A stretch of DNA of 31,843 bases from a virus (IMGVR_UViG_3300009008_000156:1-31843), one strand, 5' to 3'. Positions 1-31,843 are shown, counted from the stretch's first letter. Translations and numbers: made by a program. Notes: generated by a model not told the origin, from the sequence alone.

Positions 1-9
1 GGCTAATAT

Positions 10-37
10 TGATACGATTAGACGGATATTCGTATCA
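10..37 (-). terminator. Inverted repeat at the end of a leftward gene
   Basis: TGATACGA (10-17) and TCGTATCA (30-37) form a perfect 8-bp stem with a 12-nt loop, overlapping the stop codon of the leftward gene. It could end the leftward transcript, but no strong T-run follows on that strand, so terminator function is only possible. Confidence 0.3.
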
Positions 38-283
38 TATGTCCGTGTCTTTAAACTTTTTCCGACAAGCGCAAGTACCAACCCACACTTTTGCTTTTTG
101 TTGCCAATGTATAATCGGATTTTTATCAAACTTTTTATCACAATTTGCGCAGTCGTATTTTGCTACGCGCTCGAGTAAAATATGATGACCTTTAGCAACT
201 ACAAACTCGCTCTTTGCTAAGTGCATTGATTTGGTCTTGTGCTTGTAGTTTTTACACAGGTAGTCTTTCAGCTTTTTGTGCAT
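35..283 (-). CDS. Small putative zinc-binding protein, unknown function
   Basis: An 82-residue basic protein that I do not recognise as a family. Its second half has a CxxC pair (residues 45-48, C-A-N-C) and a CxC pair (about residues 71-73, C-A-C), spaced as in a small zinc ribbon, with Lys-rich flanks. It lies just downstream of, and on the same strand as, the gene ending at 285, with one base between them, so the two are probably co-transcribed and translationally coupled. Nucleic-acid binding is a reasonable inference from the basic, zinc-ribbon-like make-up, but nothing shows it directly. Confidence 0.65.
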   Translation of the reverse strand: MHKKLKDYLCKNYKHKTKSMHLAKSEFVVAKGHHILLERVAKYDCANCDKKFDKNPIIHWQQKAKVWVGTCACRKKFKDTDI

Positions 284-284
284 A

Positions 285-752
285 TTATCTCGGTAGCATC
301 TTCTTCTGTTTGCTGAATCGGATATTATCAGCCATTAACGTAAAGAACAAGTACTTACCAACTGCTGTTTGCTGAATCATCATTGAGTACTGTGGTGTCA
401 TACCGTTGATATTCTTGAGCGATGTTTCGATATATTCATCATCAATGTAAAGTTCGTAAACTAAGAAGTAATAATTCTTGTACATCAGCACATCATAGGT
501 AACATCACCACCCAATTCATTGGCTAGTTTATCAGTGATTAAATCAGCAATGTTAAACGCTTCAACGCAACCCGTTAAGCCTTCTCGATTATTGTAGTTA
601 ACTCGTGTAATACCATCTTCAAGTACCAACTCAGCATTAACAACAGACGAACCCATTGACACTTCGTGCAGTAGGTACATCGGATGTTTGTTTGAGCAGA
701 ACTTATCGTCTAGTATTTCATCAATCGTAAATGTTGTTTGTTTTTCAAGCAT
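285..752 (-). CDS. Unknown phage protein (155 aa)
   Basis: A soluble, mixed alpha/beta protein with no membrane segment and no motif I recognise. The open frame extends one codon further upstream to a TTG at 753-755. I chose the ATG at 750-752 because it sits at a sensible distance from a GGATAAC purine stretch. Its stop lies next to the start of the gene ending at 35, so the pair forms a leftward operon. It is read away from the rightward early genes that begin at 812, and the short space between them must hold the control of both. Confidence 0.7.
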   Translation of the reverse strand: MLEKQTTFTIDEILDDKFCSNKHPMYLLHEVSMGSSVVNAELVLEDGITRVNYNNREGLTGCVEAFNIADLITDKLANELGGDVTYDVLMYKNYYFLVYELYIDDEYIETSLKNINGMTPQYSMMIQQTAVGKYLFFTLMADNIRFSKQKKMLPR

Positions 753-775
753 CAATAATAGTTATCCGTAAATAG

Positions 776-784
776 GTGTATAAT
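776..784 (+). promoter_or_regulatory. GTGTATAAT promoter -10 box
   Basis: An exact GTGTATAAT, containing a consensus -10 TATAAT, lies 28 nt before the GTG start at 812. The same nonamer recurs at 1075 and 4345 on this strand and at 5883 and 31343 on the other, always outside genes. No TTGACA lies 16-18 nt upstream here. Confidence 0.5.
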
Positions 785-811
785 AATAAAAAACATTTAG
801 AAGGTGAAACC

Positions 812-982
812 GTGCAACAATTCAAACATTTCTGTAAGTTACAGGACAAGGTAGTAACACTTCACAGTGCAGATGTCTGTGAGTTCTGTGGTGCTGAAGA
901 TTTAGTTAACAATCGACATATGCAAGATTTCAGTGTTGAAGATTACGAGCTCGATTATCGTAAATCTACCGAGCGCAAATAG
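812..982 (+). CDS. Small CxxC protein, unknown function
   Basis: A 56-residue protein. The frame is open back to a GTG at 776, but that codon lies inside the promoter box. The GTG at 812 has an AGAAGG ribosome site seven bases upstream, so I take it as the start. The same AGAAGGT leader followed by RTGCAA precedes the starts at 3175 and 6298. A single C-E-F-C pair near residues 23-26 resembles half of a zinc knuckle, and the C-terminal half is acidic and then basic. No family is recognised. It is the first gene of the rightward early region. Confidence 0.6.
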   Translation: MQQFKHFCKLQDKVVTLHSADVCEFCGAEDLVNNRHMQDFSVEDYELDYRKSTERK

Positions 983-1074
983 TACAATTATTGGTGTATT
1001 TCTGAGTCCATTACGGACTACAATATGAGCAAGTGTATTAGCAAATCATGATGTACGCTACAAGTCAGTTATTA

Positions 1075-1083
1075 GTGTATAAT
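1075..1083 (+). promoter_or_regulatory. GTGTATAAT promoter -10 box
   Basis: An exact copy of the recurring nonamer, 170 nt before the start of the polymerase-like gene. A second TATAAT (1136-1141) lies downstream, so the gene may have two start sites. No good -35 match was seen for either. Confidence 0.45.
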
Positions 1084-1191
1084 TCATTTAGTTCTAAATG
1101 TAAAAAATAGAAAAACACCCAAAAAAAAAACCGTTTATAATAGGGGAAATACACAAGCAATTACAGCACAAAACACAAGCACTATTACATC

Positions 1192-1253: not shown

Positions 1254-2723
1254 ATGATTGAAACTAATACCAACACAAACCCAAGCACTAACCAACTACT
1301 AACCAAGTGTATTAACAAGAACATCATTGCAGTTAATAGACATAGGCATGATTACATTACTAAGACATCAGACCTAGTAGAATGTAAGTTTAATTACTCA
1401 GTAACCAAAGCAAGTAAAGCAATTCAAATCATTTATGATGAAGTAGTAAAGCAGTTGGTACAGAAATCACTTAGTAGAGATTGTGATAATGGAAGTTACA
1501 GGTTTGCATTTGGTACTAAGTTTTATAGACGAACCTTTCATGATATTAAGGTTAAGTTCAAACAAGATGTTACGATTGATGGTAAGTTCAAAAAAACAAA
1601 AGGTGTTAAGAAGAAAGGCACAGCGATTGCTATGTGGACAATCATGCAAGATGTAAATCCATTATTGAAAGTTCAAATTCAAGGTAATGATATGATTGGT
1701 ATTAGTACAGTACTAATTGATGATGATTTCAATTCAGTTATCAAATACATTACTTTGAATGATGGCGTGTACATTGTTAATATGATTGAACAACAAGGCT
1801 CGTTTAAACAAATCACTACCAAAAGTACAAAAGCTAAAAAAGGCTCTACTAAGACTGTGTTTATCAATGCTAAGATTGATAAAATCAAAATCAATGAAAC
1901 TGCATTGCTGTACTTCACAAACACCACGACTGATGAAAAACTAAAAAGTGTTGCTAAGCAGTTGCTGTTGGTTAATTCAGTTAAAGGTTATATACCACTA
2001 GCAGTATCGTACGCACATTCGGGTCGCAAGTATTACCGTGGGTCGAAATACACTAACTTACAGAACGCCAATAAAGAAGTACGCAATGTTTGTTTTAAAG
2101 GCTGTACTGAGATTGATATTAATGCGTGCAGTGCGAACTATCTAATTCAACAAGCGGACAAGTACGGTGTTGAGGTTAAATCGCTAAGACAACTAAGAGC
2201 TAATTCATTTAAGAAGAAGATTCGATTTGATTTAGCAAAACACGTATATGGTGTTGCTACACAAGAAAATATCGACAAGGCAAAGGAAATCATCACAGCA
2301 GTTGGGTTAGGTGCAAGTTTAACGGTAATACATCATGGCTTCAACAAACTACTAAGTCGTGGTGTTGTTGATGTTGTACAAATGAAACGAGCGTACCGAC
2401 ATTCATTCATGCGCATGTACTGTAAAGAAGTTACACAACTGCATAAAAAAATGTTCAATAACAATCAAGACCTTAACACCAAGTCGTACCTACATAAAGA
2501 TGGTGACATGAAACAGCCATTACAGATGGGTAGGGTTTGCACTTATCTGTACCAACGCTTTGAAGCGAAGGCCATGAATACTGCACTGAAAGGCTACACC
2601 GATAATATTAGATTACAAGTGCATGATGGCGTTTACCTTGATAATATCACTACCAAAGATATTAACATTATCAAGCAAAGATTCAGTAAAATGGACTTGA
2701 CTATTTCAATTACGGATTTATAA
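1254..2723 (+). CDS. Putative family-A-like (TV-Pol-like) polymerase
   Basis: A 489-residue protein whose second half shows ordered polymerase-like motifs. Residues 258-285 (GRKYYRGS, NLQ, KEVR, FKG) lead into motif A, E-I-D-I-N-A-C (286-292, Asp288). Next comes a basic helix ending Y-G (about 320-333), like motif B. A Q..Q..R helix near 421-445 leads into L-Q-V-H-D-G-V-Y-L (454-462, Asp458), like motif C of DNA polymerase I and single-subunit RNA polymerases. Family A polymerases use the two Asp residues to bind catalytic metals. The 'D-x-N-A' form of motif A recalls the TV-Pol branch known from virophages. I see no 3'-5' exonuclease motifs, and residues 1-240 are unrecognised. It overlaps the next gene by one base (TAATG). 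The start lacks a clear ribosome site. It may be the phage replication polymerase; the fold is inferred from motifs only. Confidence 0.55.
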   Translation: MIETNTNTNPSTNQLLTKCINKNIIAVNRHRHDYITKTSDLVECKFNYSVTKASKAIQIIYDEVVKQLVQKSLSRDCDNGSYRFAFGTKFYRRTFHDIKVKFKQDVTIDGKFKKTKGVKKKGTAIAMWTIMQDVNPLLKVQIQGNDMIGISTVLIDDDFNSVIKYITLNDGVYIVNMIEQQGSFKQITTKSTKAKKGSTKTVFINAKIDKIKINETALLYFTNTTTDEKLKSVAKQLLLVNSVKGYIPLAVSYAHSGRKYYRGSKYTNLQNANKEVRNVCFKGCTEIDINACSANYLIQQADKYGVEVKSLRQLRANSFKKKIRFDLAKHVYGVATQENIDKAKEIITAVGLGASLTVIHHGFNKLLSRGVVDVVQMKRAYRHSFMRMYCKEVTQLHKKMFNNNQDLNTKSYLHKDGDMKQPLQMGRVCTYLYQRFEAKAMNTALKGYTDNIRLQVHDGVYLDNITTKDINIIKQRFSKMDLTISITDL

Positions 2724-3097: not shown

Positions 3098-3124
3098 CGT
3101 AAATAAAGTTAAAAACATGTTACT

Positions 3125-4341: not shown

Positions 4342-4344
4342 ATC

Positions 4345-8163: not shown

Positions 8164-8952
8164 ATGTCACAAGCAAGTGATTATATTGAAAACGAAATCC
8201 TAGACCACGTTCTGGGTAATGGTGCGTTCACAAGTCCAGCGACTTTGTTTGTGCGTTTATACACATCAGCAACCGATGATACGGGTGGTGGTACTGAAGT
8301 AAGTGGTGGTAGTTACGCGGCTACCGCTTGTTCATTTGGTGCAAGTACAACTAATGGTGTTGTTACTACTTCGGGTACTGTGACATTCCCAACTGCAACA
8401 GCAGGATGGGGTACTGTTACACACCTAGCAATTTACGATGCCGCTACAGGTGGCAATCAAATCAGTCACGGTGCACTTGATGTTAGTAAAACAGTTACTA
8501 CAAATGACACATTTGAAATTAGTGCAGGACAACTAACGCAAACTGTTTCAGGTACAGCAACTGATTATCTTGAGCAGAAAGTAGCAGACCATATATTCAG
8601 TGAAGGTGCTAGAGCAATGACAGCAGGTTCTAACTTGTACATCGCTATGTTTGATGCATTGCCAACAGATGCAGGCACTTACTCAGAGTTAGCAAGCACA
8701 GGTGGATACGCTCGTGCTAATGCAACAGGTAAATTTGCTAATGCAAGCGCAGGTACTTGTACTAACGATGCTAGCATTGATTTCCCAACAGCAACAGCGA
8801 ATTGGAATGCTACAGCAACGCATTACGGTATCTTCGATGCATCTACAGCAGGCAATATGCTGTTTTGGGATGCGTTAGACGAGAATAAGACTGTAACTAA
8901 CGGTGATACATTGAAGTTCCCGATTGGTGATATTTCAATCTCGTTAGCGTAA
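8164..8952 (+). CDS. Virion protein with two tandem homologous domains
   Basis: A 262-residue protein made of two related halves (about 1-125 and 130-262). Each half begins with a D-Y-(I/L)-E-x-(E/K) helix and a D-H-(V/I) step. It continues with an L-(F/Y)-(V/I) strand, an F-P-T-A-T-A-(G/N)-W core, an H-(L/Y)-(A/G)-I-(Y/F)-D-A step and a K-T-V-T-(T/N) step. Single-domain versions of this protein are common among phage tail-fibre and decoration proteins. The duplication is old, because the halves differ at most other positions. A GGAG ribosome site and a terminator-like hairpin after the gene suggest independently tuned, high expression. Confidence 0.7.
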   Translation: MSQASDYIENEILDHVLGNGAFTSPATLFVRLYTSATDDTGGGTEVSGGSYAATACSFGASTTNGVVTTSGTVTFPTATAGWGTVTHLAIYDAATGGNQISHGALDVSKTVTTNDTFEISAGQLTQTVSGTATDYLEQKVADHIFSEGARAMTAGSNLYIAMFDALPTDAGTYSELASTGGYARANATGKFANASAGTCTNDASIDFPTATANWNATATHYGIFDASTAGNMLFWDALDENKTVTNGDTLKFPIGDISISLA

Positions 8953-11006: not shown

Positions 11007-12953
11007 ATGGCTTTAATACTAGCATCACTCACAAATTATGTAGCAGATGGATATGTAGCAACAGGTTACGCATCTGAATCACCACGCTTAGTTTTCACAT
11101 CGACGGCAACTGCTACTATTGTGAGTGGTGGTGGAACTACACACAGTGGAAGTTCATCACAAGTATTAGCTTTTTCTAACGATGAAAATTGTAGTAACGC
11201 TAATTCAGCATCAAGTAGTGCTGTTACAGCGTTTACAATGGATGAAGATGCTACTGTTGTATTAGGTGGAACTACGCATAATGCAAGTTCATCACAAGTA
11301 TTAGCTTTTTCTAATACTTCAAGTGCTACTAATACAACATCATCAAGTTCATCACAAGTATTAGCTTTTTCTAATACTTCAAGTGCTACTAATACAACAT
11401 CATCAAGTTCATCACAGGCGATTGAATTTACCAACGATGAAGATGTTTCTGTTGTACATAATGCTAGCGCAAGCCATGAAGTAATAACCGCTAATACAGA
11501 AGATTTAGGTGTTAGACATTACGCATCATCAACACAAACATTAGATTTCACTTCTACTGCAGATTGTTCAAATACGGTAAGTGCAATATCTTCACAAGCA
11601 ATTGAGTTTACTAGTACAGCAACACCAAGTAATAGTATCCCTGCAACTGCATCTTCATCATTAACATTCTCGAGTACAGATGTTGCTGTAGTTTCATCAT
11701 CAGTTTCATCATCAAACGCAATTGTATTCAGTGGTGATGAAGATGCTTCTATTGTGCACAGTGCAAGTGCTAGTCATACCATCGTTTCAGCTTCTACAGA
11801 AGATTTAGGTGTTAGACATTACGCAACTTGCTCAAGTGCAATATCGTTTAGTAACGATGAAGATATAAGCGTTAATCGACCTGCTTCGGGAAGTACGAGT
11901 GTAGTGTTTAGTATCAATGAAGATGCGAGTGTCACTCAATCAGCATCAAGTAGTGCTGATACAGTGTTCAGTAATGTTAGTACGGTACACAATTACCTTG
12001 ATACATCATCATCACAAGCATTAACATTCAGTAATGAAGAAGATGCAAACACACATCACAGTGCAAGTGCTAGCCATGAAGTTATTACTTCAAGTGAAGA
12101 AGATTTAGGTGTTAGACATTACGCTAGTTCAACGCAAACATTAGACTTTACTAATACAGATACACCATCAGTGCTAAGAAGTGCGGTATCTTCTTCACAA
12201 GCAATTGAATTTAGTAACACATCATCAACACTATTAACATTAGACGCAAGTGCAAGTAATGATTTAGTCTTTAGTTGTACAGCAACATATGAAACGCTTG
12301 TATTTGGTAGTGCTACATATGATTTAACATTCAGTAACGATGAAGATTGTAGTAATCACATCACATTATCAACACCGATTGATTATGTGTGGACTGATGA
12401 ATCAACTTGGACTGATTGGTTAAGTTGGGAAGGTTTAGACCAATTAAATCACAGCACAATTGCAATCGGTGATGAAGATGCTAGTGTTAGACATATCGCA
12501 TCAAGTAGTTCTGAAATGTCGTTTAGTACAGATGAAGATTGTTCAGTACAACACAACGCTACTAACAACTCAAATGTAATATTCACTAACGATGAAGATT
12601 GTTCAGTAAAACATAATGCAACTGCTTCACATAACGTAATTACTACTGCTGATGAAGATGCTCATGTGCTACACAAAGCAACCGCAACAGTTAGTATTGT
12701 GTTCAGTAACAGACTTGATGAATACTATGTAGACCATCAAGCAAGTGTTAATCACGCAACAATCTTTAGTAATGAAGAAGATGCTCATGTGCTACACAAA
12801 GCAACTGCTAGCCATAATGTTATTACGAGTAATGATGTTGATGCAGACATGTTAGCGGTACTACCACACAACACGATTGTGATTGGTGAAGAAACTAGAA
12901 CGATTGTTATCGGTGAAGAAAGTCGAACAATCAGTATTAACGAATTAATATAG
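11007..12953 (+). CDS. Repeat protein of about 28 twenty-residue units
   Basis: A 648-residue, Ser/Thr/Asp-rich protein with very few Lys and Arg. After a non-repetitive start (residues 1-30) nearly the whole chain is a 20-residue period of the type S-S-S-Q-x-L-x-F-S-N-D-E-D-x-S-V-x-H-x-A. An insert with W-T-D-E-S-T-W-T-D-W breaks the run near residues 462-485, and the chain ends in I-V-I-G-E-E-T-R-T repeats. Regular alternation of small polar residues with a hydrophobic pair suggests a beta-solenoid or fibre shaft, possibly with acidic turns that bind metal. It lies between fibre genes and an adaptor-like gene, so a virion role is likely. I do not recognise a named family. Confidence 0.65.
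   Translation: MALILASLTNYVADGYVATGYASESPRLVFTSTATATIVSGGGTTHSGSSSQVLAFSNDENCSNANSASSSAVTAFTMDEDATVVLGGTTHNASSSQVLAFSNTSSATNTTSSSSSQVLAFSNTSSATNTTSSSSSQAIEFTNDEDVSVVHNASASHEVITANTEDLGVRHYASSTQTLDFTSTADCSNTVSAISSQAIEFTSTATPSNSIPATASSSLTFSSTDVAVVSSSVSSSNAIVFSGDEDASIVHSASASHTIVSASTEDLGVRHYATCSSAISFSNDEDISVNRPASGSTSVVFSINEDASVTQSASSSADTVFSNVSTVHNYLDTSSSQALTFSNEEDANTHHSASASHEVITSSEEDLGVRHYASSTQTLDFTNTDTPSVLRSAVSSSQAIEFSNTSSTLLTLDASASNDLVFSCTATYETLVFGSATYDLTFSNDEDCSNHITLSTPIDYVWTDESTWTDWLSWEGLDQLNHSTIAIGDEDASVRHIASSSSEMSFSTDEDCSVQHNATNNSNVIFTNDEDCSVKHNATASHNVITTADEDAHVLHKATATVSIVFSNRLDEYYVDHQASVNHATIFSNEEDAHVLHKATASHNVITSNDVDADMLAVLPHNTIVIGEETRTIVIGEESRTISINELI
11284..11416 (+). repeat. Exact 60-bp tandem repeat inside the repeat gene
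   Basis: Bases 11284-11356 are identical to the bases 60 positions downstream (11344-11416), giving 2.2 perfect copies of one 20-codon unit. The lack of any synonymous change means a recent duplication, by slippage or unequal recombination, or an assembly artefact. Confidence 0.9.
11446..12126 (+). repeat. 300-bp higher-order repeat
   Basis: A 26-base block is identical at 11499-11524, 11799-11824 and 12099-12124, exactly 300 bp apart each time. In the protein it is E-D-L-G-V-R-H-Y-A, always preceded by a S-A-S-H unit. So blocks of five 20-residue units were duplicated together, on top of the basic 60-bp period. Confidence 0.85.
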
Positions 12954-12962
12954 GAAATTATT

Positions 12963-13298
12963 ATGTCGAGAAGTGGTGCTAAAAGAGATAGAGAAGGTGT
13001 TTATTTTGAAAAAGACCCGACCGAAGTTGTACCTTACACATTTGATTGGGCAGACCCTAGTAACTTGTTTTTGGATAACGATACCATTGCAACAAGCACA
13101 TGGACTGCACAGACAATTGCAGGTGATACTAATGCATTAACAGTCGATTCATCATCAAACACTGATAGATATTCAGTTGTGTTGTTGAGCGCAGGCTCGT
13201 TAACAAACATTTACCGTGTAACTAACACGATTACAACTGCTAATGGTAATACATTTGAGCGTTACATGCGCATCTTGGTTAAAGATAGAACTGCATAA
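12963..13298 (+). CDS. Fibre/tail adaptor-like protein
   Basis: A 111-residue protein with the layout Y-F-E-K-D-P-T, D-W-A-D-P, D-T-I-A-T-S-T-W-T (about 44-52), then I-Y-R-V-T-N-T-I-T-T and R-Y-M-R-I-L-V-K-D. This is the pattern of small beta-sandwich phage proteins annotated as fibre-tail adaptors. It starts with an AGGA ribosome site after the repeat gene and overlaps the terminase small-subunit gene by one base. It shares an exact 20-base block (13092-13111) with the large fibre gene (9192-9211). Function is inferred from resemblance. Confidence 0.55.
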   Translation: MSRSGAKRDREGVYFEKDPTEVVPYTFDWADPSNLFLDNDTIATSTWTAQTIAGDTNALTVDSSSNTDRYSVVLLSAGSLTNIYRVTNTITTANGNTFERYMRILVKDRTA

Positions 13299-13789
13299 TG
13301 TCTAAAAAGCTCAGAGAAAGTCTTGCATTTGGTGAACAAGATGTCACTAAAAAAGGTTTTATTATTGAAACTAAAGACGGTGAAGTATTGATTGATGAAG
13401 AAGAAGTTCTTCACCTAGCACGACTGTACTGTACTAACAAAGAGATTTCGGAATGGTTTGGTGTAACTACCGACGATATTAAACGATATTTCGGTGATGT
13501 GCTTAGACGCGGTCGTGTTGAAGTTAAGTATCACATTAGACAAGCGCAATACAAACTCGCAATTGAAGATAGAGATAGAACTATGCTGATTTGGTTAGGT
13601 AAAAACCTACTAAAACAGTCAGATACTGGGCAATTAGATACCGAAGATATTGCACCGTTACCGTGGACTGATGATTTTGATAAAGTAATCGAAGATGTAG
13701 GTGTTCAACATGAAGCATCTTGTACTACTGAATTATCATTTAGTAATAGCACTAAGTGCTGTAATGCTGAGGTAGCAACATGCCGTTAA
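13298..13789 (+). CDS. terS: Terminase small subunit with fused repeat tail
   Basis: A 163-residue protein. Residues 30-70 contain a DNA-binding helix-turn-helix (L-A-R-L-Y-C-T-N-K-E-I-S-E-W-F-G-V). Next comes the helical part typical of small terminases (Q-A-Q-Y-K-L-A, then M-L-I-W-L-G-K-N-L-L-K-Q) at about 88-109. It selects phage DNA and recruits the large subunit, whose gene starts inside its last codons. Residues 132-163 are unusual: E-D-V-G-V-Q-H-E-A-S plus a 20-residue unit with E-L-S-F-S-N. This is the repeat unit of the protein encoded at 11007 and is not part of the terminase family as I know it. The start is set by a TAATG overlap. Confidence 0.8.
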   Translation: MSKKLRESLAFGEQDVTKKGFIIETKDGEVLIDEEEVLHLARLYCTNKEISEWFGVTTDDIKRYFGDVLRRGRVEVKYHIRQAQYKLAIEDRDRTMLIWLGKNLLKQSDTGQLDTEDIAPLPWTDDFDKVIEDVGVQHEASCTTELSFSNSTKCCNAEVATCR

Positions 13790-15027
13790 GTAAAGGTCAA
13801 ATCGATATTACTAAGTCTGATGCACGATTTAAAGTCGCTGTATGCGGTCGTAGATTTGGCAAAACTTACTTAGCAATGCGTGAACTTGCTAAACACGCAA
13901 CAACACCGCACACAAACAGCTTTTATGTTGCGCCCACATACCGACAAGCAAAACAAGTGATGTGGGATACACTTACGAACAAACTACGCAGTTTAAATTG
14001 GGTTAAAAACATTAACAAATCAGATTTGCGTATTGATTTAGTTAACGGTAGCACCATCTCGTTACGAGGTGCAAACAATTTTGATAGTATGCGTGGTGTA
14101 GCACTTGACCACCTTGTAATGGATGAGTTCAGTTACACCGATAGTAAAGCGTGGACTGAAGTACTAAGACCTACATTATCAGATAGATTAGGCAATGCAT
14201 TGTTTATTACAACACCTGCAGGTCAAGGTAATTGGTCATTTGATTTGTACAATAGAGGTCAAGAAACTAACAATGATTGGGCTAGTTTTCAGTTCACTAC
14301 ATTAGACGGTGGTAATGTTACTGAAGAAGAAATTGCTGATGCACGCAAAGATTTAGACGAACGCACATTCAGACAAGAATATGAAGCAAGTTTTGAAACT
14401 TATGCAGGTCAGATTTACTACGGATTTGATGTTAAAACGCATGTTAAAGAGTACGAAGGCGATGTTAACAAGATTAAATCAATTAATGTATTCTGTGATT
14501 TCAATGTCAATCCGATGTCAGCAGTTGTATTAGTTGAAACAGACTTTGGATTACACGCAGTTGATGAAATTATCATTTACGGTAGTAATACACATGAATT
14601 AGCCGAAGAAGTACGCAATCGTTACAAAACACAACGAGTTACAGCGTATCCCGACCCTGCATCAACACAACGCAAAACATCTGCACAAGGTAGAACTGAT
14701 TACAGTATTTTGCAGAATGCAGGTTTCAACATGAAGGTTAGGCGAAAGCACCCCGCTGTTAGAGATAGAATAAATGCGGTAAATAGTGTATTAGCACCTA
14801 TTAACGGTAAACCTAAGTTGTTGATTAGTCCTAAGTGCAAGACTTTAATCAATTGTTTGATTAAACAAGAATACAAAGAAGGCACGCAAGTACCTGATAA
14901 AGATTCAGGTTACGACCATTTAAACGATGCACTAGGCTACGGTATTGAGTTTATCTACCCAATTCGCACCGAAGTAGAACCATTAACAAACGCTCAACTA
15001 TCGAGTTGGGAAAGCAGAACATTTTAA
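13780..15027 (+). CDS. terL: Terminase large subunit
   Basis: A 415-residue packaging motor. ATPase part: Walker A C-G-R-R-F-G-K-T (22-29), Walker B L-V-M-D-E (112-116, catalytic Glu116) and coupling motif F-I-T-T-P (142-146). Nuclease part of RNase H fold: Asp240 in C-D-F-N, Asp292 in Y-P-D-P, and D-H-L-N-D (379-383), which supply the metal-binding acids. It cuts concatemeric DNA and pumps it through the portal. Its ATG lies 10 nt inside the small-subunit gene with an AGG ribosome site. Length is within the family range, all key residues are present, and the portal gene follows. Confidence 0.95.
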   Translation: MPLSKGQIDITKSDARFKVAVCGRRFGKTYLAMRELAKHATTPHTNSFYVAPTYRQAKQVMWDTLTNKLRSLNWVKNINKSDLRIDLVNGSTISLRGANNFDSMRGVALDHLVMDEFSYTDSKAWTEVLRPTLSDRLGNALFITTPAGQGNWSFDLYNRGQETNNDWASFQFTTLDGGNVTEEEIADARKDLDERTFRQEYEASFETYAGQIYYGFDVKTHVKEYEGDVNKIKSINVFCDFNVNPMSAVVLVETDFGLHAVDEIIIYGSNTHELAEEVRNRYKTQRVTAYPDPASTQRKTSAQGRTDYSILQNAGFNMKVRRKHPAVRDRINAVNSVLAPINGKPKLLISPKCKTLINCLIKQEYKEGTQVPDKDSGYDHLNDALGYGIEFIYPIRTEVEPLTNAQLSSWESRTF

Positions 15028-15036
15028 GGATTAATT

Positions 15037-16428
15037 ATGTCATACACAATAGAACAAGTAGAACAAAAGCACACTGCGTACGATAAGCACATTGATGAAT
15101 GGCGATTCTTTAGTGATAGCTTTTTAGGTGGTGAATCATACAAACAAGGTGAATACTTAACACGCTATGAAAGTGAAATCGATAACGATGATGCTTACAA
15201 CGCACGCATTCAACAAACACCAATTGATAATCACTGCGCTAGTGTAATTCAAATTTACAACAGTTTCTTATTCAGAGAAAGTGTTACTAGAAGTCTAGGC
15301 TCTTTGCAAAATAACCCGTTCTTGGAGTTGTTTTTAAAAGATAGTGATACCGAAGGTCGTAGTTGGAATAACTTCGTTAAACAAGCGAATGAGCAAGCAT
15401 CAGTGTACGGACATTGTTGGGTTGTATTAGACAGACCTAATATTCAGTTCAAAACACAAGCAGAAGAAATTGATGCTAATGTTAGACCTTATGTGAGTAT
15501 GTTCACTGCACCTAATGTAGTTGATTGGAAGTACGAGTACACCAACAACGGTTTAATTGAATTATCTGAGTTGAAGGTAATTGAAGCATCATCAGTAGAT
15601 TTTACTGTTTACAAGATATTCTACCGTGATAAAACTGATACGGTTATTGTTAATCACAAAAATAAGCGTGAACTACAGTTACTTAAATCAGTACCTAATC
15701 CCTACAACAAAATACTCGCAGTAACGTTGTACGCTAGACGAAGTAATGTACTAGGTTTAGGTTATTCAGACATTAGCGACATCGCTACACATCAAAAAGC
15801 CATTTACAACGAGCGAAGCGAAGTTGAACAAGCAATTCGATTGAATGTTCACAGTATCTTAGCAAGTGAAAGTGGTGTACAAGTTGGGCCAGGTGCAGGT
15901 GGTAGATGCATAATCCCTGAAAACACAGACCCTTCATTGAAACCTTACTTCTTAGATAGTAACAGTGATATTGCTGTAATCATGGCTAGTATCGAACATA
16001 AGGTCGATGCAATCAACATCATGGCGAATGTGGGTAGTGTTAGAGCAATTGAAAGTAAAAAACTATCAGGTGTTGCATTAGAAACAGAATTTCAACTACT
16101 GAACGCTAGACTTGCTGAAAAAGCCGATAACCTTGAGCTGTTTGAAGAACAAGTATTCAAGATGTTCGCAACTATGGTATCAGTGAATTACGATGGTGAA
16201 ATTAATTACCCTAATTCATTCAATATTCGCGACAAGTATGTTGATTTGAACTTTCTACAGCAAGCGAAAGTATCAAATGTTAATAGTGATACCTTCAACA
16301 AAGAAATTGATAAGCAAATCGCTAATTTAGCCATCAAAGAAGAAGGCTTATTGCAAGATGCGTTAGATGAAATCGATACCAATGAAGTTAAAACTACATT
16401 AGTTGATGATACTAACGTAAATATATAA
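15037..16428 (+). CDS. Portal protein
   Basis: A 463-residue protein following the large terminase, as portal genes usually do. Residues near 45-100 (Y-N-A-R-I-Q-Q-T-P-I-D-N, then I-Q-I-Y-N-S-F-L-F) match the N-terminal wing of phage portals. A charged helix-rich stem and crown follow, with V-A-L-E-T-E-F-Q-L-L around 345-354. The dodecameric ring sits at one capsid vertex, binds terminase during packaging and later the tail. An AAGGA ribosome site supports the start. Family is inferred from position, size and these segments. Confidence 0.85.
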   Translation: MSYTIEQVEQKHTAYDKHIDEWRFFSDSFLGGESYKQGEYLTRYESEIDNDDAYNARIQQTPIDNHCASVIQIYNSFLFRESVTRSLGSLQNNPFLELFLKDSDTEGRSWNNFVKQANEQASVYGHCWVVLDRPNIQFKTQAEEIDANVRPYVSMFTAPNVVDWKYEYTNNGLIELSELKVIEASSVDFTVYKIFYRDKTDTVIVNHKNKRELQLLKSVPNPYNKILAVTLYARRSNVLGLGYSDISDIATHQKAIYNERSEVEQAIRLNVHSILASESGVQVGPGAGGRCIIPENTDPSLKPYFLDSNSDIAVIMASIEHKVDAINIMANVGSVRAIESKKLSGVALETEFQLLNARLAEKADNLELFEEQVFKMFATMVSVNYDGEINYPNSFNIRDKYVDLNFLQQAKVSNVNSDTFNKEIDKQIANLAIKEEGLLQDALDEIDTNEVKTTLVDDTNVNI

Positions 16429-16504
16429 ATACAATACAACACTGCGTTTAGCAGGTACGGAACTACACCGTTTGTAGGCAACTCGAACATAAGAGGAAAA
16501 AATA
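16429..16504 (+). promoter_or_regulatory. Spacer with small hairpins before the scaffold gene
   Basis: This 76-nt gap contains CTGC/GCAG (16442-16445 / 16451-16454) and CTAC/GTAG (16463-16466 / 16474-16477) stems and ends with AGAGGAAAAA, a strong ribosome site. It is one of the few sizeable gaps in the head operon and may set the level of scaffold relative to portal. Confidence 0.3.
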
Positions 16505-17170
16505 ATGTCAGAAGTAACTGAAACTGAAAATTCTCAGGATATTGATGCAACTGCAACATCACAAACAGCGCAGGTAGAAATGATTGAAAAATCTAAGGTT
16601 AACGATATTGTACAATCGCGAATTGCACGAGCTGAAAAGAAAGTGCGTGATGAATACAATGATGTTGATGTTGAATTATACAATCAACTAGTTCAAGAAA
16701 AGCAAAACGCTAAACAGTTGATGCTAAAAGAGCAAGGTAAGTTTGATGAATTGTTAAACGAAACCGTAGCACCTTTACAGAATCAGATTAGTGCTTTGAA
16801 AGAGCAAATTAGAGTAGAAAAAGTAGACATGAGTATTTTGGGTAGTGCGAGCAACATGAACGCAATCAATCCCGAACAAGTTGTACAGTTGTTACAGAAT
16901 CAAGTTAAATTCAACGATGGCAACATCGAAGTAATTGATTTGACAACAGGTAATCAACGATATAACAAAGATGCTCAAAAATACACTGTTGACGAGTTAG
17001 TTAACGAATTTCTAACTACTAACCCACACTTCGTTAAAGCAAGTGTTGCGGGTAGCGGAACTAGTAGCAACACCGAAACTTCGGGAATTGAGAAAATCGA
17101 TTGGACTAATGCAGATATGTCAGACCCTGTTATAAGACAACAGTACAAAGACTATAAACGTAATGCCTAA
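16505..17170 (+). CDS. Capsid scaffold protein
   Basis: A 221-residue, acidic, helix-rich protein between the portal and major capsid genes, the usual place of a scaffold. Residues 25-115 are coiled-coil-like (A-R-A-E-K-K-V-R-D-E, then Q-N-Q-I-S-A-L-K-E-Q-I-R-V-E). The C-terminal 25 residues are rich in Asp and Lys, as in the capsid-binding tails of phage scaffolds. It would template assembly of the empty prohead and then leave or be degraded. No protease motif is visible in it or nearby. Confidence 0.8.
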   Translation: MSEVTETENSQDIDATATSQTAQVEMIEKSKVNDIVQSRIARAEKKVRDEYNDVDVELYNQLVQEKQNAKQLMLKEQGKFDELLNETVAPLQNQISALKEQIRVEKVDMSILGSASNMNAINPEQVVQLLQNQVKFNDGNIEVIDLTTGNQRYNKDAQKYTVDELVNEFLTTNPHFVKASVAGSGTSSNTETSGIEKIDWTNADMSDPVIRQQYKDYKRNA

Positions 17171-17207
17171 TCAAACATTATTTTTTATTTTATAGGAGTG
17201 TCATAAA

Positions 17208-18050
17208 ATGGCAAACGAAATCACAACAACTTCATTAACGAAGTTATTCAACGAGATGATTACAGACATCTCATTTACAGCAAACGAAAGTTACATCTTA
17301 AAAAATTTAGTTAAGAATGTAGTCGCACCAATGTCAACTACTACTACACAAGTACCTGTATATCCTACAGACACTATTGCTAGTGCAGTTGCTGAAGGTA
17401 CTGATTACACAACTAACACTGATATTGTACCAACAGACCTTGATTTGACGGTGTCTGAGCATGTTCTAATGTCAACTTTAACAGACTTATCTGCTAGTGT
17501 TGGTAATAGAAACAACATCATGGACATTATCAATTACCTAGGTTCAGGTGTAGCAAAGCGACAAGACCAAGATATTTCAGGTTTGTTCACATCATTCAGT
17601 ACTGAGAAAGGGCCGGGTGCAGGTGCAGAATTAACACCATCACACATTTTCCAAGCAGTAGCATCTTTGCGTGGTAATAATGTAACAGGTGAAATTGTAG
17701 CAGTGTTACATCCTGCTCAAGTTTACGCAGTACAAAACGCGCTAACTAACTCATTCATTCCACAATCAAACGCGGCAACAGCAGAAGCTGTAATGCGTAA
17801 CGGTTTTGTTGGTGAATTAGCAGGTGTTAATGTATTCCAATCTACATCAGTACAAGTTGATGGTAGTGGTGATGCAATTGGTGCTGTATTCGCGCGTGAT
17901 GCAATTGCATTAGCGGACAGAGGTGTTAGTACTGAGATTGAGCGTAATGCTAGTCTACGTGCTTCAGAAATTGTTACCACAGGTACTTGGGCTGAAGGAA
18001 TTCTTCACAATACTTACGGTGTTAAATTAACTTCTGATTCTATTGTTTAA
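17208..18050 (+). CDS. Major capsid protein
   Basis: A 280-residue protein directly after the scaffold, with the strongest ribosome site in the head block (TAGGAG). It shows the HK97-fold pattern: an N-terminal helix, a beta part with V-A-P-M-S-T-T-T-T-Q-V-P-V-Y-P, the long spine-helix region (about 100-150) with R-Q-D-Q-D-I-S-G-L-F, and a late V-N-V-F-Q-S-T-S strand. It lacks a long N-terminal delta domain, consistent with the separate scaffold gene. Hundreds of copies form the shell. Fold assignment is inferred from position and general pattern. Confidence 0.85.
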   Translation: MANEITTTSLTKLFNEMITDISFTANESYILKNLVKNVVAPMSTTTTQVPVYPTDTIASAVAEGTDYTTNTDIVPTDLDLTVSEHVLMSTLTDLSASVGNRNNIMDIINYLGSGVAKRQDQDISGLFTSFSTEKGPGAGAELTPSHIFQAVASLRGNNVTGEIVAVLHPAQVYAVQNALTNSFIPQSNAATAEAVMRNGFVGELAGVNVFQSTSVQVDGSGDAIGAVFARDAIALADRGVSTEIERNASLRASEIVTTGTWAEGILHNTYGVKLTSDSIV

Positions 18051-18056
18051 TTCGTA

Positions 18057-18491
18057 ATGGCATATAGTACAGACGCAGATGTCCAAGAGTTGTTTCCTGA
18101 TTTACAGGATTACGACAATTTGAGTTTTAGTGATGACCATGCTAGAACACAAGCGGATATACAACGCAAATTGAGAATTGATTGGTATCCGATGTACCTG
18201 CAAAGTGTTAAAAACGCTAGCAGTACATCAGAGATGGATAATACCAAACTAACTGATTCGCAGTTTAAGAACGCGTCTGTATACCATGTGTTGAGTTATT
18301 ACATTCTACCTAAGTTGTCTGATTTTGTTGAAGGCGATAAGTTTACAAGTGCAATGGAGTTTTACAGAACTCGCTTTGAAGAAGAATTTGATGCCATCTT
18401 AGCCGATGGTGTTGAGTACGATAGTGATGGTGATTCAACTATCACTAACAAAGAGAAATCCGTTAAAACTTCAGTGTACATGCGAAGATAA
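18057..18491 (+). CDS. Head-tail connector (adaptor) protein
   Basis: A 144-residue helical protein placed immediately after the capsid gene, where gp6/gp15-like adaptors are found. The N-terminal A-D-V-Q-E-L-F-P-D-L and the helix near Y-H-V-L-S-Y-Y-I-L-P-K-L (about 80-91) fit that group. It would form a ring under the portal. No clear ribosome site precedes its ATG six bases after the capsid stop, so it is probably translated by re-initiation. Confidence 0.65.
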   Translation: MAYSTDADVQELFPDLQDYDNLSFSDDHARTQADIQRKLRIDWYPMYLQSVKNASSTSEMDNTKLTDSQFKNASVYHVLSYYILPKLSDFVEGDKFTSAMEFYRTRFEEEFDAILADGVEYDSDGDSTITNKEKSVKTSVYMRR

Positions 18492-18493
18492 TC

Positions 18494-18943
18494 ATGAGTT
18501 TAAGAGAACAAATTGTTGAAGATTTAGTTTCAACACTACGCGATGCCAACAACGGCAACATACGGTTTGTGTCGAGAAAAATATTAAGCGAAAGCGATTT
18601 TTCAAGACAACAATACCCACTTGTTATTGTTGGTGCTAGTGATGAAACAAGAAGCGATTTAACGATGACAGGTACTTCAGGTACGCGTGAATCGTTCTTA
18701 GACATTACATTATTGGGCTTTGTTTCAGGTGCTAAACGCGAAATTGATACTTTACGCAATCGATTAATCGAAGATGTTGAAGTAGCAATTGATGCTGATA
18801 GAACACGAAACGGTCTTGCATTAAACACACAACTTACTACTGTTGCTGTTGATAACTTCGATTTAGTCGATGAACAGAAAACAGTTGGTAGAGTGGATTT
18901 AACTATTGAAATACATTATGTTTACACACGAGGTACACCATGA
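18494..18943 (+). CDS. Tail terminator-like protein
   Basis: A 149-residue alpha/beta protein two bases after the adaptor gene. It has a helix at 1-18, a strand with Q-Y-P-L-V-I-V-G-A, and C-terminal D-L-T-I-E-I-H-Y-V-Y-T. This resembles lambda gpU-type tail terminators, which cap the tail tube and join it to the head. The assignment rests on size, position before the major tail protein and secondary-structure pattern. It overlaps the next small gene (ATGA). Confidence 0.6.
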   Translation: MSLREQIVEDLVSTLRDANNGNIRFVSRKILSESDFSRQQYPLVIVGASDETRSDLTMTGTSGTRESFLDITLLGFVSGAKREIDTLRNRLIEDVEVAIDADRTRNGLALNTQLTTVAVDNFDLVDEQKTVGRVDLTIEIHYVYTRGTP

Positions 18944-19942: not shown

Positions 19943-20277
19943 GTTTTTTAAATAAAGCGAAAAAACATTTCAACACATGTTTAACGCAAGAATTACAAAG
20001 TGTTGAAGTTAAAGAGTTAAACGAAACAGTATATTTTAGACCTGTTACAACATTCGCAAAGTTACAAGAAATTTCCAAGTACTACGATGAAGGTAAGATG
20101 CAAGAAGGACTTGCAATGGGTATTATTATGCGTGCATTGAACAAAGATGGAACGCCTATGTTTAATACCAACAACATGCCTGAACTGATGAATGAAGTAG
20201 ACCCTAAAATACTTTATAAAATAGCTGATGCTATGGCTAGTGCCGAAGTTACGATTGAGGAAGTTGAAAAAAACTAA
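19939..20277 (+). CDS. Tail assembly chaperone gpG
   Basis: A 112-residue protein just upstream of the tape measure, overlapping the previous gene by ATGA and carrying an AAGGAG ribosome site. It has a beta N-terminal part (V-E-V-K-E-L-N-E-T-V-Y-F-R-P) and a helical C-terminal part, the layout of lambda gpG. It coats the tape measure during tail assembly and is absent from the finished virion. The last codons GAA AAA AAC TAA hold a -1 slippery site, so part of the product is extended. Confidence 0.8.
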   Translation: MSFLNKAKKHFNTCLTQELQSVEVKELNETVYFRPVTTFAKLQEISKYYDEGKMQEGLAMGIIMRALNKDGTPMFNTNNMPELMNEVDPKILYKIADAMASAEVTIEEVEKN

Positions 20278-23211: not shown

Positions 23212-23786
23212 TGGCTAGAGGTTTAGATGCATCAACATTAGCGATACTGAACAGCGGTAATTTTATACTTGCTGATTTAGTTGAATTGGAATTGGATACT
23301 CCACTGTACTTTACGAGTGCGGGTTATGATTTAACTACTACAACTGATACTAGTTCAGGTACTCAAACATACTACGCACAAGGTAAATTCATGGAACACA
23401 CTGCTGTTAATGAGCGTGAGCAACCTAACATTGGAACGGTGAACATTACCTTCACAGGTGTACCTGATACTTTTAGAAACATCGCATTATCAGACAACTA
23501 CTTACATAAAGAAATACGCATTTACAAAGCTTTTTTCAGTAGTACTGATTTAAGTTCACTTGTAGACCCTGTGCTTTGGTATTCGGGTAGATTTACAGGT
23601 GCTACTGTTGTTGATAGTACTGATACTAGTACAGTTACATTTCAAACATCGGCTCATTTTGCTGATTTTGATTTTACATCAGGTAGAAAAACAAACGATG
23701 GTAGTCAACAACGCTTTTTCCCGGGTGATAAATTCTTCGAGTACAGTACCGAAGCAATTAAGGATTTGAAATGGGGTAAATCATGA
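23211..23786 (+). CDS. Tail hub protein (DUF2163 / lambda gpL-type)
   Basis: A 191-residue protein. P-L-Y-F-T-S-A-G-Y-D-L near residues 31-41, Y-Y-A-Q-G-K-F and the C-terminal S-Q-Q-R-F-F-P-G-D-K-F-F-E, then W-G-K, are typical of tail-hub proteins sitting between distal tail protein and tip. The gene ends TCATGA, overlapping the start of the HNH gene. Before that insertion it probably overlapped the gene now at 24250 in the same way. Confidence 0.7.
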   Translation: MARGLDASTLAILNSGNFILADLVELELDTPLYFTSAGYDLTTTTDTSSGTQTYYAQGKFMEHTAVNEREQPNIGTVNITFTGVPDTFRNIALSDNYLHKEIRIYKAFFSSTDLSSLVDPVLWYSGRFTGATVVDSTDTSTVTFQTSAHFADFDFTSGRKTNDGSQQRFFPGDKFFEYSTEAIKDLKWGKS

Positions 23787-24255
23787 TTAATAAATCAGAT
23801 ATTAATTGGAATACATTAACGCGATTCTTCAACAAGTTCGATTTTACTGATAGTTCGGTGTGTTGGGATTGGCAGGCTAGTAAAAATAAACAAGGTTACG
23901 GTAGATTTAGTGTTGATAACAAACTTATGTACGCACATAGGTTCAGTTATACAATTCACAACGGTGAAATACCTGAAAACTTGTTCGTAATGCATACCTG
24001 TGATAACCCTAGTTGCGTTAATCCTAGACATTTGAAGGTAGGTACACATCAAGATAACATGGATGATAAATGTGCTAAAAACAGACAAGCACGCATGTTT
24101 GGTGAAGATAATCCTGCATCGAAACTAACAACAGAACAAGTACACGATATTAGAACTAAGCGTATCGCAGGTGTTGAGTTTGCTGAGTTGTACGGTGTTG
24201 ATAAATCACAAATATCAAGAATTCAAAATAATTTAAAGTGGGTGAACGCATGATT
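23782..24255 (+). mobile_element. HNH insertion bounded by CATGATT
   Basis: CATGATT occurs at 23782-23788 and again at 24249-24255, exactly framing the HNH gene. Removing one copy plus the gene would rejoin the hub gene and the gene at 24250 with a normal ATGA overlap. This marks the likely insertion boundaries. Confidence 0.6.
23783..24253 (+). CDS. HNH homing endonuclease
   Basis: A 156-residue free-standing HNH nuclease. It has C-W-D-W (27-30), G-Y-G-R-F (38-42) and A-H-R-F-S-Y (51-56), then the core V-M-H-T-C-D-N-P-S-C-V-N-P-R-H-L (69-84, with His71, Asn80, His83) and G-T-H-Q-D-N-M-D-D (87-95). The C-terminal part (S-K-L-T, then L-Y-G-V-D-K-S-Q-I-S-R-I) is a helix-turn-helix that would give target recognition. 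Such genes spread by cutting alleles that lack them. Here it sits between two tail genes with ATGA overlaps at both ends and takes no part in tail assembly. Confidence 0.9.
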   Translation: MINKSDINWNTLTRFFNKFDFTDSSVCWDWQASKNKQGYGRFSVDNKLMYAHRFSYTIHNGEIPENLFVMHTCDNPSCVNPRHLKVGTHQDNMDDKCAKNRQARMFGEDNPASKLTTEQVHDIRTKRIAGVEFAELYGVDKSQISRIQNNLKWVNA

Positions 24256-30250: not shown

Positions 30251-30555
30251 TAGTTCGCTCCCGGGTAAAAGTAAGGTTCTACGCCTGTACGCTCGGTTTC
30301 TAAATCAATGTAAGTTTGTCGCTCACCTTGCATTTCAAGTAATTCTTGCGTGCTGTATTCAGTAATCTTAGCGTCTTTAACAAGTTGCTTGTCGATTGTA
30401 GATTGCATCTTAGCAATCTCAATCTCGAGCTCATTGCACAAGTTAATTAACTCAGCATCGGGCTTAATCGCCTTTACGCGCTTATAACCTTCAACGGTTT
30501 GCTCAATAGTACCACCATCGACACCTTCCATGATTGCATTCATAGTCTTAGACAT
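30250..30555 (-). CDS. Unknown helical protein, leftward operon gene 3
   Basis: A 101-residue acidic protein with a predicted coiled-coil stretch (about 40-80, with E-L-E-I-E-I-A-K-M) and an aromatic end (Y-F-Y-P-G-A-N). It shares one base with both neighbours, so the operon is translated as a coupled chain. Unknown function; the helical acidic make-up would suit a host-protein inhibitor, but that is speculation. Confidence 0.65.
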   Translation of the reverse strand: MSKTMNAIMEGVDGGTIEQTVEGYKRVKAIKPDAELINLCNELEIEIAKMQSTIDKQLVKDAKITEYSTQELLEMQGERQTYIDLETERTGVEPYFYPGAN

Positions 30556-31055
30556 TAGTGTAGTACCTCAACATTACTAGCGCAGTTAGATTCATCAAGC
30601 ACAACACCACAATCTTCACAATGCGTGTTATAAACTGTTAACTTCGGATTCTTGCGTTGTTCATCAATAAGATACTGTACTGTTGCACCTACCTCAAATG
30701 CATCGATTTCAAACATTATCTGCACCGCTAATTGATATGTGCTGTAACCCGCTAATTGCTCAATAGAATCAGTACTTAATGCATCACCGTTGATAACTTC
30801 ACGCGTGATTTTCTGAAGAATGCGCTGTAGTTCACGTTGTTGAATCGAGAACAACTCTAATGCCTTCTGTGATGATTTGTTATCTCTAACCCAATCTTGT
30901 AGTTGATACGGTGTTTCAGCTATTTCAGTTGCTTTGCAATATTCGTTCAATGCGAACCAAAGTGCTTCTACTTGATGTGCTTGTTTAGCATCACCTGTTA
31001 CTGTTGCTATGTCGTTTTCGATACTAACGCTATGTCCGTAAAATGATTTTCTCAT
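30555..31055 (-). CDS. Unknown helical protein with C-terminal CxxC
   Basis: A 166-residue protein, mostly helical. The N-terminus has F-Y-G-H-S-V-S-I. Near the C-terminus H-C-E-D-C-G-V-V-L-D-E-S-N-C (about 144-157) gives a His and three Cys, enough for a small zinc site. Its first codons overlap the end of the gene at 31052 (ATGA). No family recognised. Confidence 0.65.
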   Translation of the reverse strand: MRKSFYGHSVSIENDIATVTGDAKQAHQVEALWFALNEYCKATEIAETPYQLQDWVRDNKSSQKALELFSIQQRELQRILQKITREVINGDALSTDSIEQLAGYSTYQLAVQIMFEIDAFEVGATVQYLIDEQRKNPKLTVYNTHCEDCGVVLDESNCASNVEVLH

Positions 31056-31234
31056 TCTGCACCTCTATTGTTTCGAATTGAGATATTATCCCTTAGTTCA
31101 GCGTTAAGATTTTCTAACATATCTTTAAGTGCAGGTATTGTAGTTTCATCGATTCGCTGTAGGTTGTCGTTGATGATTTCAATAACAATCTTATTAGATT
31201 CAAGTATCGCTTCGGTTCTTTGGTCGTCTTTCAT
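31052..31234 (-). CDS. Small coiled-coil protein, leftward operon gene 1
   Basis: A 60-residue, highly charged helical protein with a heptad-like pattern (I-L-E-S-N-K-I-V-I-E-I-I-N-D-N-L) and no membrane segment. It is preceded by an AAGGA ribosome site and is the first gene after the leftward promoter at 31343-31370. Probably a small oligomeric early protein; function unknown. Confidence 0.65.
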   Translation of the reverse strand: MKDDQRTEAILESNKIVIEIINDNLQRIDETTIPALKDMLENLNAELRDNISIRNNRGAE

Positions 31235-31270
31235 ATTATATTTTCCTTATAAAGTTAAATTAATTAAATC

Positions 31271-31303
31271 GGTAGCAACATTTGTTAGGAATGGATTGCT
31301 ACC
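31271..31303. repeat. 8-bp inverted repeat in the leftward leader
   Basis: GGTAGCAA (31271-31278) and TTGCTACC (31296-31303) are exact inverted copies separated by 17 nt. A tandem GGTAAATC (31312-31319, 31320-31327) follows. They lie between the leftward promoter and its first gene, where an operator or a leader hairpin would act. Confidence 0.45.
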
Positions 31304-31342
31304 TAATCGATGGTAAATCGGTAAATCCATCAACTTCCAACG

Positions 31343-31370
31343 ATTATACACATAACATATGTCATGTCAA
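31343..31370 (-). promoter_or_regulatory. Leftward sigma-70 promoter
   Basis: On the minus strand TTGACA (31365-31370) lies 16 bp before TATAAT (31343-31348), both perfect consensus boxes. The -10 is part of the recurring GTGTATAAT. It drives the four-gene leftward operon. Confidence 0.8.
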
Positions 31371-31398
31371 ATATATTTACTCGATTTATCTTGACATG
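31363..31398. promoter_or_regulatory. Perfect dyad joining two -35 boxes
   Basis: CATGTCAA (31363-31370) and TTGACATG (31391-31398) are exact inverted copies 20 bp apart and contain the two -35 boxes. One dimeric regulator could bind here and control both directions together. Confidence 0.5.
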
Positions 31399-31418
31399 GT
31401 GTTTTTTATCAGTACAAT
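31391..31418 (+). promoter_or_regulatory. Rightward sigma-70 promoter
   Basis: TTGACA (31391-31396) and TACAAT (31413-31418) are separated by 16 bp, the same spacing as in the leftward promoter. It points to the gene starting at 31473, giving a leader of about 50 nt. Confidence 0.75.
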
Positions 31419-31472
31419 GAACCGTATCTGAACAATAATGTTTAGATAATTTAACAATATAAGGAGTTCAAA

Positions 31473-31843
31473 ATGAACAAAAATAAAGAAGAAGTAAGAA
31501 GTGATTTTAACCAAGTAGTAATGCGCTTTGGGGATTTTTACCAAGAAGCAATTGAGTTTGATGTTAGTTTGTATTGCGGATATGACGACATCGATAATGT
31601 ATTAGGACTTAAAGAAGTGTTGGAAAATCCAAAAGATACTATTTACAATGAAGCGTGGTTAAACGCACTACCTACGAAAGTATTTGATAAAATCGTCGAA
31701 GTGTGTATCACGACATCAGTTAATGCTATCGCTGATGGGTATTTGGATAATGATACTTTTGTGGAACATATTACTGAACTCAATTATTATCGTGACAATG
31801 CCGATTCGATTAAAAATGAATTTTACGAGGATTTTGCAACTTT
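31473..31843 (+). CDS. Unknown acidic protein, cut by the window end
   Basis: ATG at 31473 with an AAGGAG ribosome site opens a frame of 123 complete codons that runs off the window without a stop. The visible part is acidic and helical (M-R-F-G-D-F-Y-Q-E-A-I-E-F-D, then G-L-K-E-V-L-E-N-P-K-D), with no recognised family. The strong promoter and ribosome site suggest high early expression. It is the first gene of the next rightward transcript. Confidence 0.7.
   Translation, partial: MNKNKEEVRSDFNQVVMRFGDFYQEAIEFDVSLYCGYDDIDNVLGLKEVLENPKDTIYNEAWLNALPTKVFDKIVEVCITTSVNAIADGYLDNDTFVEHITELNYYRDNADSIKNEFYEDFAT

What the first reader, a model, noticed from the sequence alone, without database searches (positions are those of the whole stretch)
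1..31843. No GATC site seen in the whole window
Reading the sequence through, including across block and line ends, I found no GATC. With this AT-rich composition roughly 100 would be expected by chance. Other four-base palindromes (CTAG, GTAC, CATG, TCGA, GGCC) are present. Where an Asp codon precedes a codon starting with C, the cases I checked use GAC (8203, 20200, 27861) although GAT is the commoner Asp codon. That points to selection at synonymous sites. Likely causes are escape from a GATC-cutting restriction system or from Dam-linked host functions.
Basis: partly seen in the sequence, partly recalled or inferred. Interest (0 to 1): 0.8.

Follow-up and report, generated by a model that had tools for sequence, protein, structure and literature searches.

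The report
Phage genome lacking every GATC site
This small aquatic phage genome has lost every GATC, most likely because its hosts cut DNA at that word, and its cousins have each lost a different set of short words; the kind of adaptation is well known, but the family shows its turnover clearly.

Summary
Observation confirmed. The 31,843-base window (a whole IMG/VR virus record; a tailed phage related to pelagiphages HTVC111P/112P/202P/026P) holds 0 GATC against 66 (dinucleotide shuffles), 138 (order-2 Markov) or 82±6 (synonymous-codon shuffles, coding part only). It is the only absent 4-mer. All three reading frames avoid it: Asp before C is GAC 38/38 (94/639 elsewhere), Ile after G is never ATC (0/94; 148/504 elsewhere), no nGA before TCN (0/28).

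Selection is continuing: a sister at 86% DNA identity (L002) also has 0 GATC, although its synonymous substitutions should have made about 9-12. A more distant cousin (G005) lacks GATC, AGCT and ACGT; others lack AGCT+GTAC+GCGC+CGCG (G004), AGCT+GTAC and nearly TGCA (G007:C59), six or seven palindromes (G003), or AGCC (DSL-LC06). SAR11-type members, whose hosts are reported to lack restriction-modification, mostly keep everything.

Best explanation: escape from GATC-cutting restriction (DpnII- or DpnI-type) in present or recent hosts. Dam/MutH mismatch-repair counterselection is the main rival; a phage-encoded GATC nuclease is unlikely. Host and enzyme are not identified. Known kind of adaptation; modest interest.

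The parts
1..31843 (.). Whole phage record with no GATC on either strand
8203..8206 (+). Example: Asp GAC before a C-starting codon (one of 38 of 38)
20200..20203 (+). Example: Asp GAC before a C-starting codon
27861..27864 (+). Example: Asp GAC before a C-starting codon
13780..15027 (+). Terminase large subunit (places the phage: 93% to L002, 67% to G005, about 51% to Pelagibacter phages)
15037..16428 (+). Portal protein; basis of the family tree
17208..18050 (+). Major capsid protein
12247..18904 (+). Stretch matched at 100% by independent record L001 (6,658 b), also with 0 GATC
13780..18811 (+). Main stretch aligned at 86% DNA identity with L002; holds most of the eight genes used for the substitution test (GATC 0 in both; ACGT 5 here against 21 in L002 over the eight genes)
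23783..24253 (+). HNH homing-type endonuclease between tail genes; no homologue in the partial GATC-free cousin G005

Best explanation
The genome has been purged of GATC, mostly by synonymous changes, because present or recent hosts cut DNA at GATC: a DpnII/MboI/Sau3AI-type enzyme on unmethylated GATC, a DpnI-type enzyme on methylated GATC, or both in different host strains. Each site raises the chance of being cut on entry, so any mutation that makes a GATC is removed. Shown here: absence beyond chance, synonymous avoidance in all frames, continued selection since the split from L002, and the same kind of absence for other palindromes in sister phages. Inferred: that the agent is a restriction enzyme. 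Not known: the host and its enzyme.
For: 0 GATC against 82±6 under synonymous-codon shuffling, and 0 in non-coding DNA where about 9 are expected. Codon contexts: GAC 38/38 before C, ATC 0/94 after G, nGA 0/28 before TCN. L002 (86% DNA identity): 493 synonymous codon differences over 2,057 codons made 0 GATC where context-free substitution gives 9.3 or 11.9, minimum 3 in 1,000 re-deals. One-step neighbours AATC and CATC are in excess, z about +8. Site sets in cousins, synonymous null: G005 GATC 0/59, AGCT 0/75, ACGT 0/52; G004 GTAC 0/101, AGCT 0/76, GCGC 0/39, CGCG 0/23; G007:C59 AGCT 0/85, GTAC 0/81, TGCA 3/111; G003 AGCT, CATG, CTAG, TCGA, CCGG and TGCA all 0, GCGC 1/49; DSL-LC06 AGCC 0/89. 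The 76 SAR11-type relatives keep GATC at 0.62 and AGCT at 0.89 of expectation in pool, and SAR11 genomes are reported to lack R-M systems (PMC9516812). GATC is under-represented in all 46 phages whose hosts encode a GATC REase (PMC6286503).
Against: Host unknown, so no GATC enzyme could be shown. In the one bacterial family weakly linked to relatives (Porticoccaceae), no DpnII-family enzyme was found in 98 genomes; only that GATC enzyme family (and MutH/Sau3AI) was searched there. GATC alone is also explicable by Dam/MutH. One SAR11-type contig (L100/G006) has GATC 1/47, although SAR11 is said to lack R-M.
Confidence: 0.77

Rival explanations
1. Counterselection by Dam-linked methyl-directed mismatch repair: MutH nicks unmethylated GATC in fast-replicating, undermethylated phage DNA, or absence of GATC raises the phage mutation rate.
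For: Documented for enterobacteriophages; phiX174 has no GATC against 20 expected (PMC5014478).
Against: Does not explain the simultaneous full absence of AGCT and ACGT in the GATC-free cousin G005, nor partial ACGT/AGCT avoidance here. No MutH in 61 genomes of the Porticoccaceae, the only family linked to relatives, and no Dam-class methylase in the two genomes that hold relatives. The actual host is not known.
Confidence: 0.13
2. The phage encodes its own GATC-specific nuclease that degrades host DNA, and keeps itself free of the site.
For: An HNH endonuclease is encoded at 23783-24253, and several early genes are of unknown function; a zinc-finger-like protein (5411-5746) is the best kept of the non-structural genes shared with G005 (65-68%).
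Against: The HNH protein matches homing endonucleases and has no homologue in the GATC-free G005 record, which is partial. No restriction-enzyme family in Pfam or PADLOC matches the proteins scanned. The 5411-5746 protein is predicted, at low confidence, as long helices. Cousins lack up to seven words, which would need many nucleases each.
Confidence: 0.05
3. Composition or mutational bias, codon-pair preference or a protein-level effect, not selection on the DNA word.
For: Other words are depleted too (CCAG 12/105, TGAC 69/170, CTCC 15/65).
Against: GATC is exactly 0, also in non-coding DNA and in all three frames. L002 keeps it at 0 despite hundreds of substitutions. Cousins with similar composition keep GATC at expectation (C59 69/62, G004 78/78).
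Confidence: 0.03
4. Assembly or library artefact (for example a GATC-cutting enzyme used in preparation).
For: None found.
Against: Cutting would break contigs at GATC, not replace it by synonymous codons. Three further records from three other IMG datasets show the same (L001, L002, L050/G005).
Confidence: 0.02

Closest known systems
Restriction-site avoidance in phages (Sharp 1986; Rusinov et al. 2018, PMC6286503)
   Same: Complete or near-complete loss of a short palindrome recognised by Type II/IIM enzymes; GATC is the clearest case in that survey (CB<1 in all 46 phages whose hosts encode the enzyme).
   Different: Host and enzyme unknown here. Three to seven palindromes are absent at once in some relatives, and the set differs between relatives.
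GATC counterselection in enterobacteriophages (phiX174; Deschavanne and Radman 1991, cited in PMC5014478)
   Same: No GATC in the genome.
   Different: There linked to Dam and mismatch repair in E. coli; here relatives lack unrelated palindromes as well.
GANTC depletion in about half of 33 pelagiphage genomes (PMC9516812)
   Same: Word depletion that partitions a marine phage phylogeny; some pelagiphages are relatives of this phage.
   Different: Different word; GANTC is not notably depleted here (46/58).
Pelagibacter phages HTVC111P, HTVC112P, HTVC202P, HTVC026P and lake phage DSL-LC06
   Same: Same head and tail gene order; terminase about 50-52%, portal about 40-47% identical; similar genome length.
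   Different: They keep GATC (55-127 per genome); GC is lower in the HTVC phages; the early region of the window is largely unmatched.

Membership tests
Restriction-site avoidance (phage anti-restriction by loss of sites) | Count of the site far below expectation from composition | tested here: met
   0 against 66/82/138 under three nulls
Restriction-site avoidance (phage anti-restriction by loss of sites) | Avoidance acts on DNA, through synonymous codon choice | tested here: met
   Codon contexts and synonymous shuffles
Restriction-site avoidance (phage anti-restriction by loss of sites) | Avoidance is maintained by selection over divergence | tested here: met
   L002 comparison, 0 against 9-12 expected
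Restriction-site avoidance (phage anti-restriction by loss of sites) | Host encodes a restriction enzyme for that site | not testable with these tools
   Host unknown; DpnII family absent from 98 genomes of a family linked only to relatives
Dam/MutH counterselection of GATC | Host has Dam and MutH | tested here: inconclusive
   Host unknown; MutH 0 of 61 genomes of a relative-linked family
Dam/MutH counterselection of GATC | Only GATC affected | tested here: not met
   AGCT and ACGT are also absent in GATC-free cousin G005; ACGT and AGCT partly avoided here
Self-encoded GATC nuclease | A nuclease gene shared by all GATC-free members | tested here: inconclusive
   HNH gene has no homologue in G005, but that record is partial, L002 does not cover the region, and unknown early genes remain

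The most novel reading that the evidence does not exclude
Within one phage family the set of fully absent short words is a fast-changing record of which restriction systems each lineage faces: phages 86% identical share the GATC ban but differ in the ACGT ban, and a cousin bans three words at once. Read together with the R-M-poor SAR11 branch as a control, such sets could serve as a host fingerprint for uncultured phages.
Probability: 0.35. Interest if true: 0.5.

Novelty: new member of a known kind. Interest (0 to 1): 0.33.

Why it matters
The absence points to restriction as a live force on this phage and gives a concrete prediction about its unknown host: GATC-cutting enzymes, and perhaps ACGT and AGCT ones. 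The family offers a natural comparison between branches facing little restriction (SAR11 hosts) and branches facing several systems, and a close pair in which one ban is shared and another is not, so the speed of gain and loss of site avoidance could be measured.

Tried and rejected
Chance and composition: rejected by three nulls. Protein-level cause: rejected by synonymous shuffles. HNH gene as cause: no homologue in G005. GCWGC absence as a second restriction target of this phage: dropped because it is also absent or nearly absent in pelagiphages and several other relatives. CCAG, TGAC and CTCC depletion: real but incomplete; GGAG/CTCC may reflect avoidance of ribosome-binding-like words inside genes; left unexplained. 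Host search: relatives of the portal occur in two MAGs of one family (Porticoccaceae), but binning is weak evidence and the closest relatives of the window are not among them; DpnII and MutH searches there were negative. Structure predictions of the 489-aa early protein and of the 5411-5746 protein were too poor to use. Relatives of the early protein: none in the viral contigs scan, isolated phages or the PDB; only G005 has one.

Full report
The observation. GATC does not occur in the 31,843-base window on either strand. Expected counts are 66±7 from dinucleotide shuffles, 107 from base composition and 138 from the order-2 Markov estimate. Because selection on proteins or codon usage could in principle produce a deficit, I re-dealt synonymous codons among all sites of the coding 91% of the window; this keeps every protein and the overall codon usage. 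The expectation is then 82.1±6.1, minimum 70 in 60 shuffles. GATC is the only 4-mer that is completely absent. Non-coding DNA (2.9 kb) also has none where about 9 are expected.

Each of the three frames shows the avoidance. Asp before a codon starting with C is GAC in 38 of 38 cases, but in only 94 of 639 elsewhere. Ile after a codon ending in G is never ATC (0 of 94), but ATC makes 148 of 504 elsewhere. Gly/Arg codons ending in GA never precede TCN (0 of 28). The neighbour words AATC and CATC are in excess, as expected if sites are diverted by single changes.

What the window is. It is a whole IMG/VR virus record, linear, without end repeats. It is a tailed phage with terminase, portal, capsid, tape measure and tail genes. 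Its isolated relatives are Pelagibacter phages HTVC111P, HTVC112P, HTVC202P and HTVC026P and the lake phage DSL-LC06 (terminase about 50-52%, portal about 40-47%). Those genomes are 30-32 kb, so the window is probably near complete. No DNA methyltransferase was found among the proteins scanned, so self-methylation is probably not the protection used.

Relatives. L001 is identical over 6.7 kb, from another dataset. L002 is 86% identical at DNA level over the terminase-to-head region and also has no GATC in 12.4 kb. Over eight shared genes there are 493 synonymous codon differences in 2,057 codons. Re-dealing L002's codons among sites that have the same window codon and encode the same residue gives 9.3±2.5 GATC (minimum 3 of 1,000); the reverse test gives 11.9±2.6 (minimum 4). 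Both observed values are 0. The absence is therefore kept by selection and is not just inherited.

The same test shows that ACGT behaves differently: 5 in the window against 20.0±2.9 expected, but 21 in L002 against 20.7±3.2. Pressure against ACGT has acted on the window's lineage and not detectably on L002. Whether the window is losing ACGT sites or regaining them after an earlier ban is open: the cousin G005 (terminase 67%) has no ACGT, AGCT or GATC at all (0/52, 0/75, 0/59).

Wider family. Other members lack other words (synonymous null). G004: GTAC 0/101, AGCT 0/76, GCGC 0/39, CGCG 0/23. G007:C59: AGCT 0/85, GTAC 0/81, TGCA 3/111. G003: AGCT, CATG, CTAG, TCGA, CCGG and TGCA all 0, and GCGC 1/49. 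DSL-LC06: AGCC 0/89. On the portal tree the window and L002 form one clade; G005 groups with L047-L049, which lack AGCT but keep GATC. The GATC ban therefore needs at least two changes within this small group. The 76 SAR11-type contigs keep GATC at 0.62 and AGCT at 0.89 of expectation; Pelagibacterales genomes are reported to lack R-M systems (PMC9516812). One of them (L100/G006, GATC 1/47) is an exception. Low expected counts make single zeros for other words in short SAR11-type contigs less secure.

Mechanism. Complete loss of several unrelated 4-bp palindromes, differing between relatives, is what Type II restriction predicts. I infer that GATC in this phage has the same cause. Both DpnII-type (unmethylated GATC) and DpnI-type (methylated GATC) enzymes would select for absence. 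The published survey found GATC under-represented in all 46 phages whose hosts encode a GATC enzyme (PMC6286503). The main rival is Dam/MutH mismatch repair, argued for phiX174 and other enterobacteriophages (PMC5014478). It explains GATC but not AGCT or ACGT.

Host. The host is not known. The portal profile found relatives in seven genome assemblies; two lie in the same family, Porticoccaceae, out of 112 family members searched. That family showed no DpnII-type enzyme (0/98) and no MutH (0/61), and the two genomes show no Dam-class methylase. The MAG holding C59 has two cytosine-methylase matches, one of them beside a small open frame that looks to me like a nuclease (not tested). These genomes relate to cousins of the window, so they neither confirm nor refute the claim for the window itself.

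Novelty. Loss of restriction sites, GATC included, is a known phage strategy, so this is a new member of a known kind. The moderately interesting part is the family-level turnover: bans shared and not shared between phages 86% identical, and a branch with R-M-free hosts as a control.

Noticed in passing
window 1-31843: CCAG/CTGG is strongly but not fully depleted (12 against 105 by synonymous null), as in L002 (7/50) but much less so in G005 (64/101) and not in most other relatives; TGAC/GTCA (69/170) and CTCC/GGAG (15/65) are also low. No cause found for CCAG.
   Followed up: partly
L044 (phage DSL-LC06), whole record: The non-palindromic 4-mer AGCC/GGCT is completely absent (0 against 89 in coding DNA; 0/109 by Markov) in a published lake phage; I know of no enzyme that recognises it.
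   Followed up: no
G003 (L036+L037), whole record: Six 4-bp palindromes fully absent and GCGC nearly so, GCWGC absent, and several CG-containing 4-mers (ACGG, ACGA, CCGA) nearly absent: an unusually heavy load of avoided words for a 27 kb phage.
   Followed up: partly
window 1254-2723: 489-aa protein with EIDINACSAN and QVHDGVYLD stretches that recall family-A polymerase or phage RNA polymerase motifs; no Pfam, PHROG, PADLOC, PDB or isolated-phage relative, one relative in G005 (59%).
   Followed up: partly
window 4959-5414: Aspartyl/asparaginyl beta-hydroxylase-like protein (PF05118, 4.9e-17), shared with G005 but without a match in isolated phages.
   Followed up: no
window 11007-12953: Repeat-rich 648-aa protein built of degenerate units of about 60 bases; L002 reads it much longer (2397-6449).
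   Followed up: no
window 27399-29162: Tail fibre whose C-terminal half, with a peptidase S74 chaperone domain, is 46-47% identical to Bacillus SPO1-type tail spike proteins.
   Followed up: no
L038:10406-11182: G004 encodes an N6/N4 DNA methylase (PF01555, 5e-40) next to its terminase, alongside four absent palindromes.
   Followed up: no
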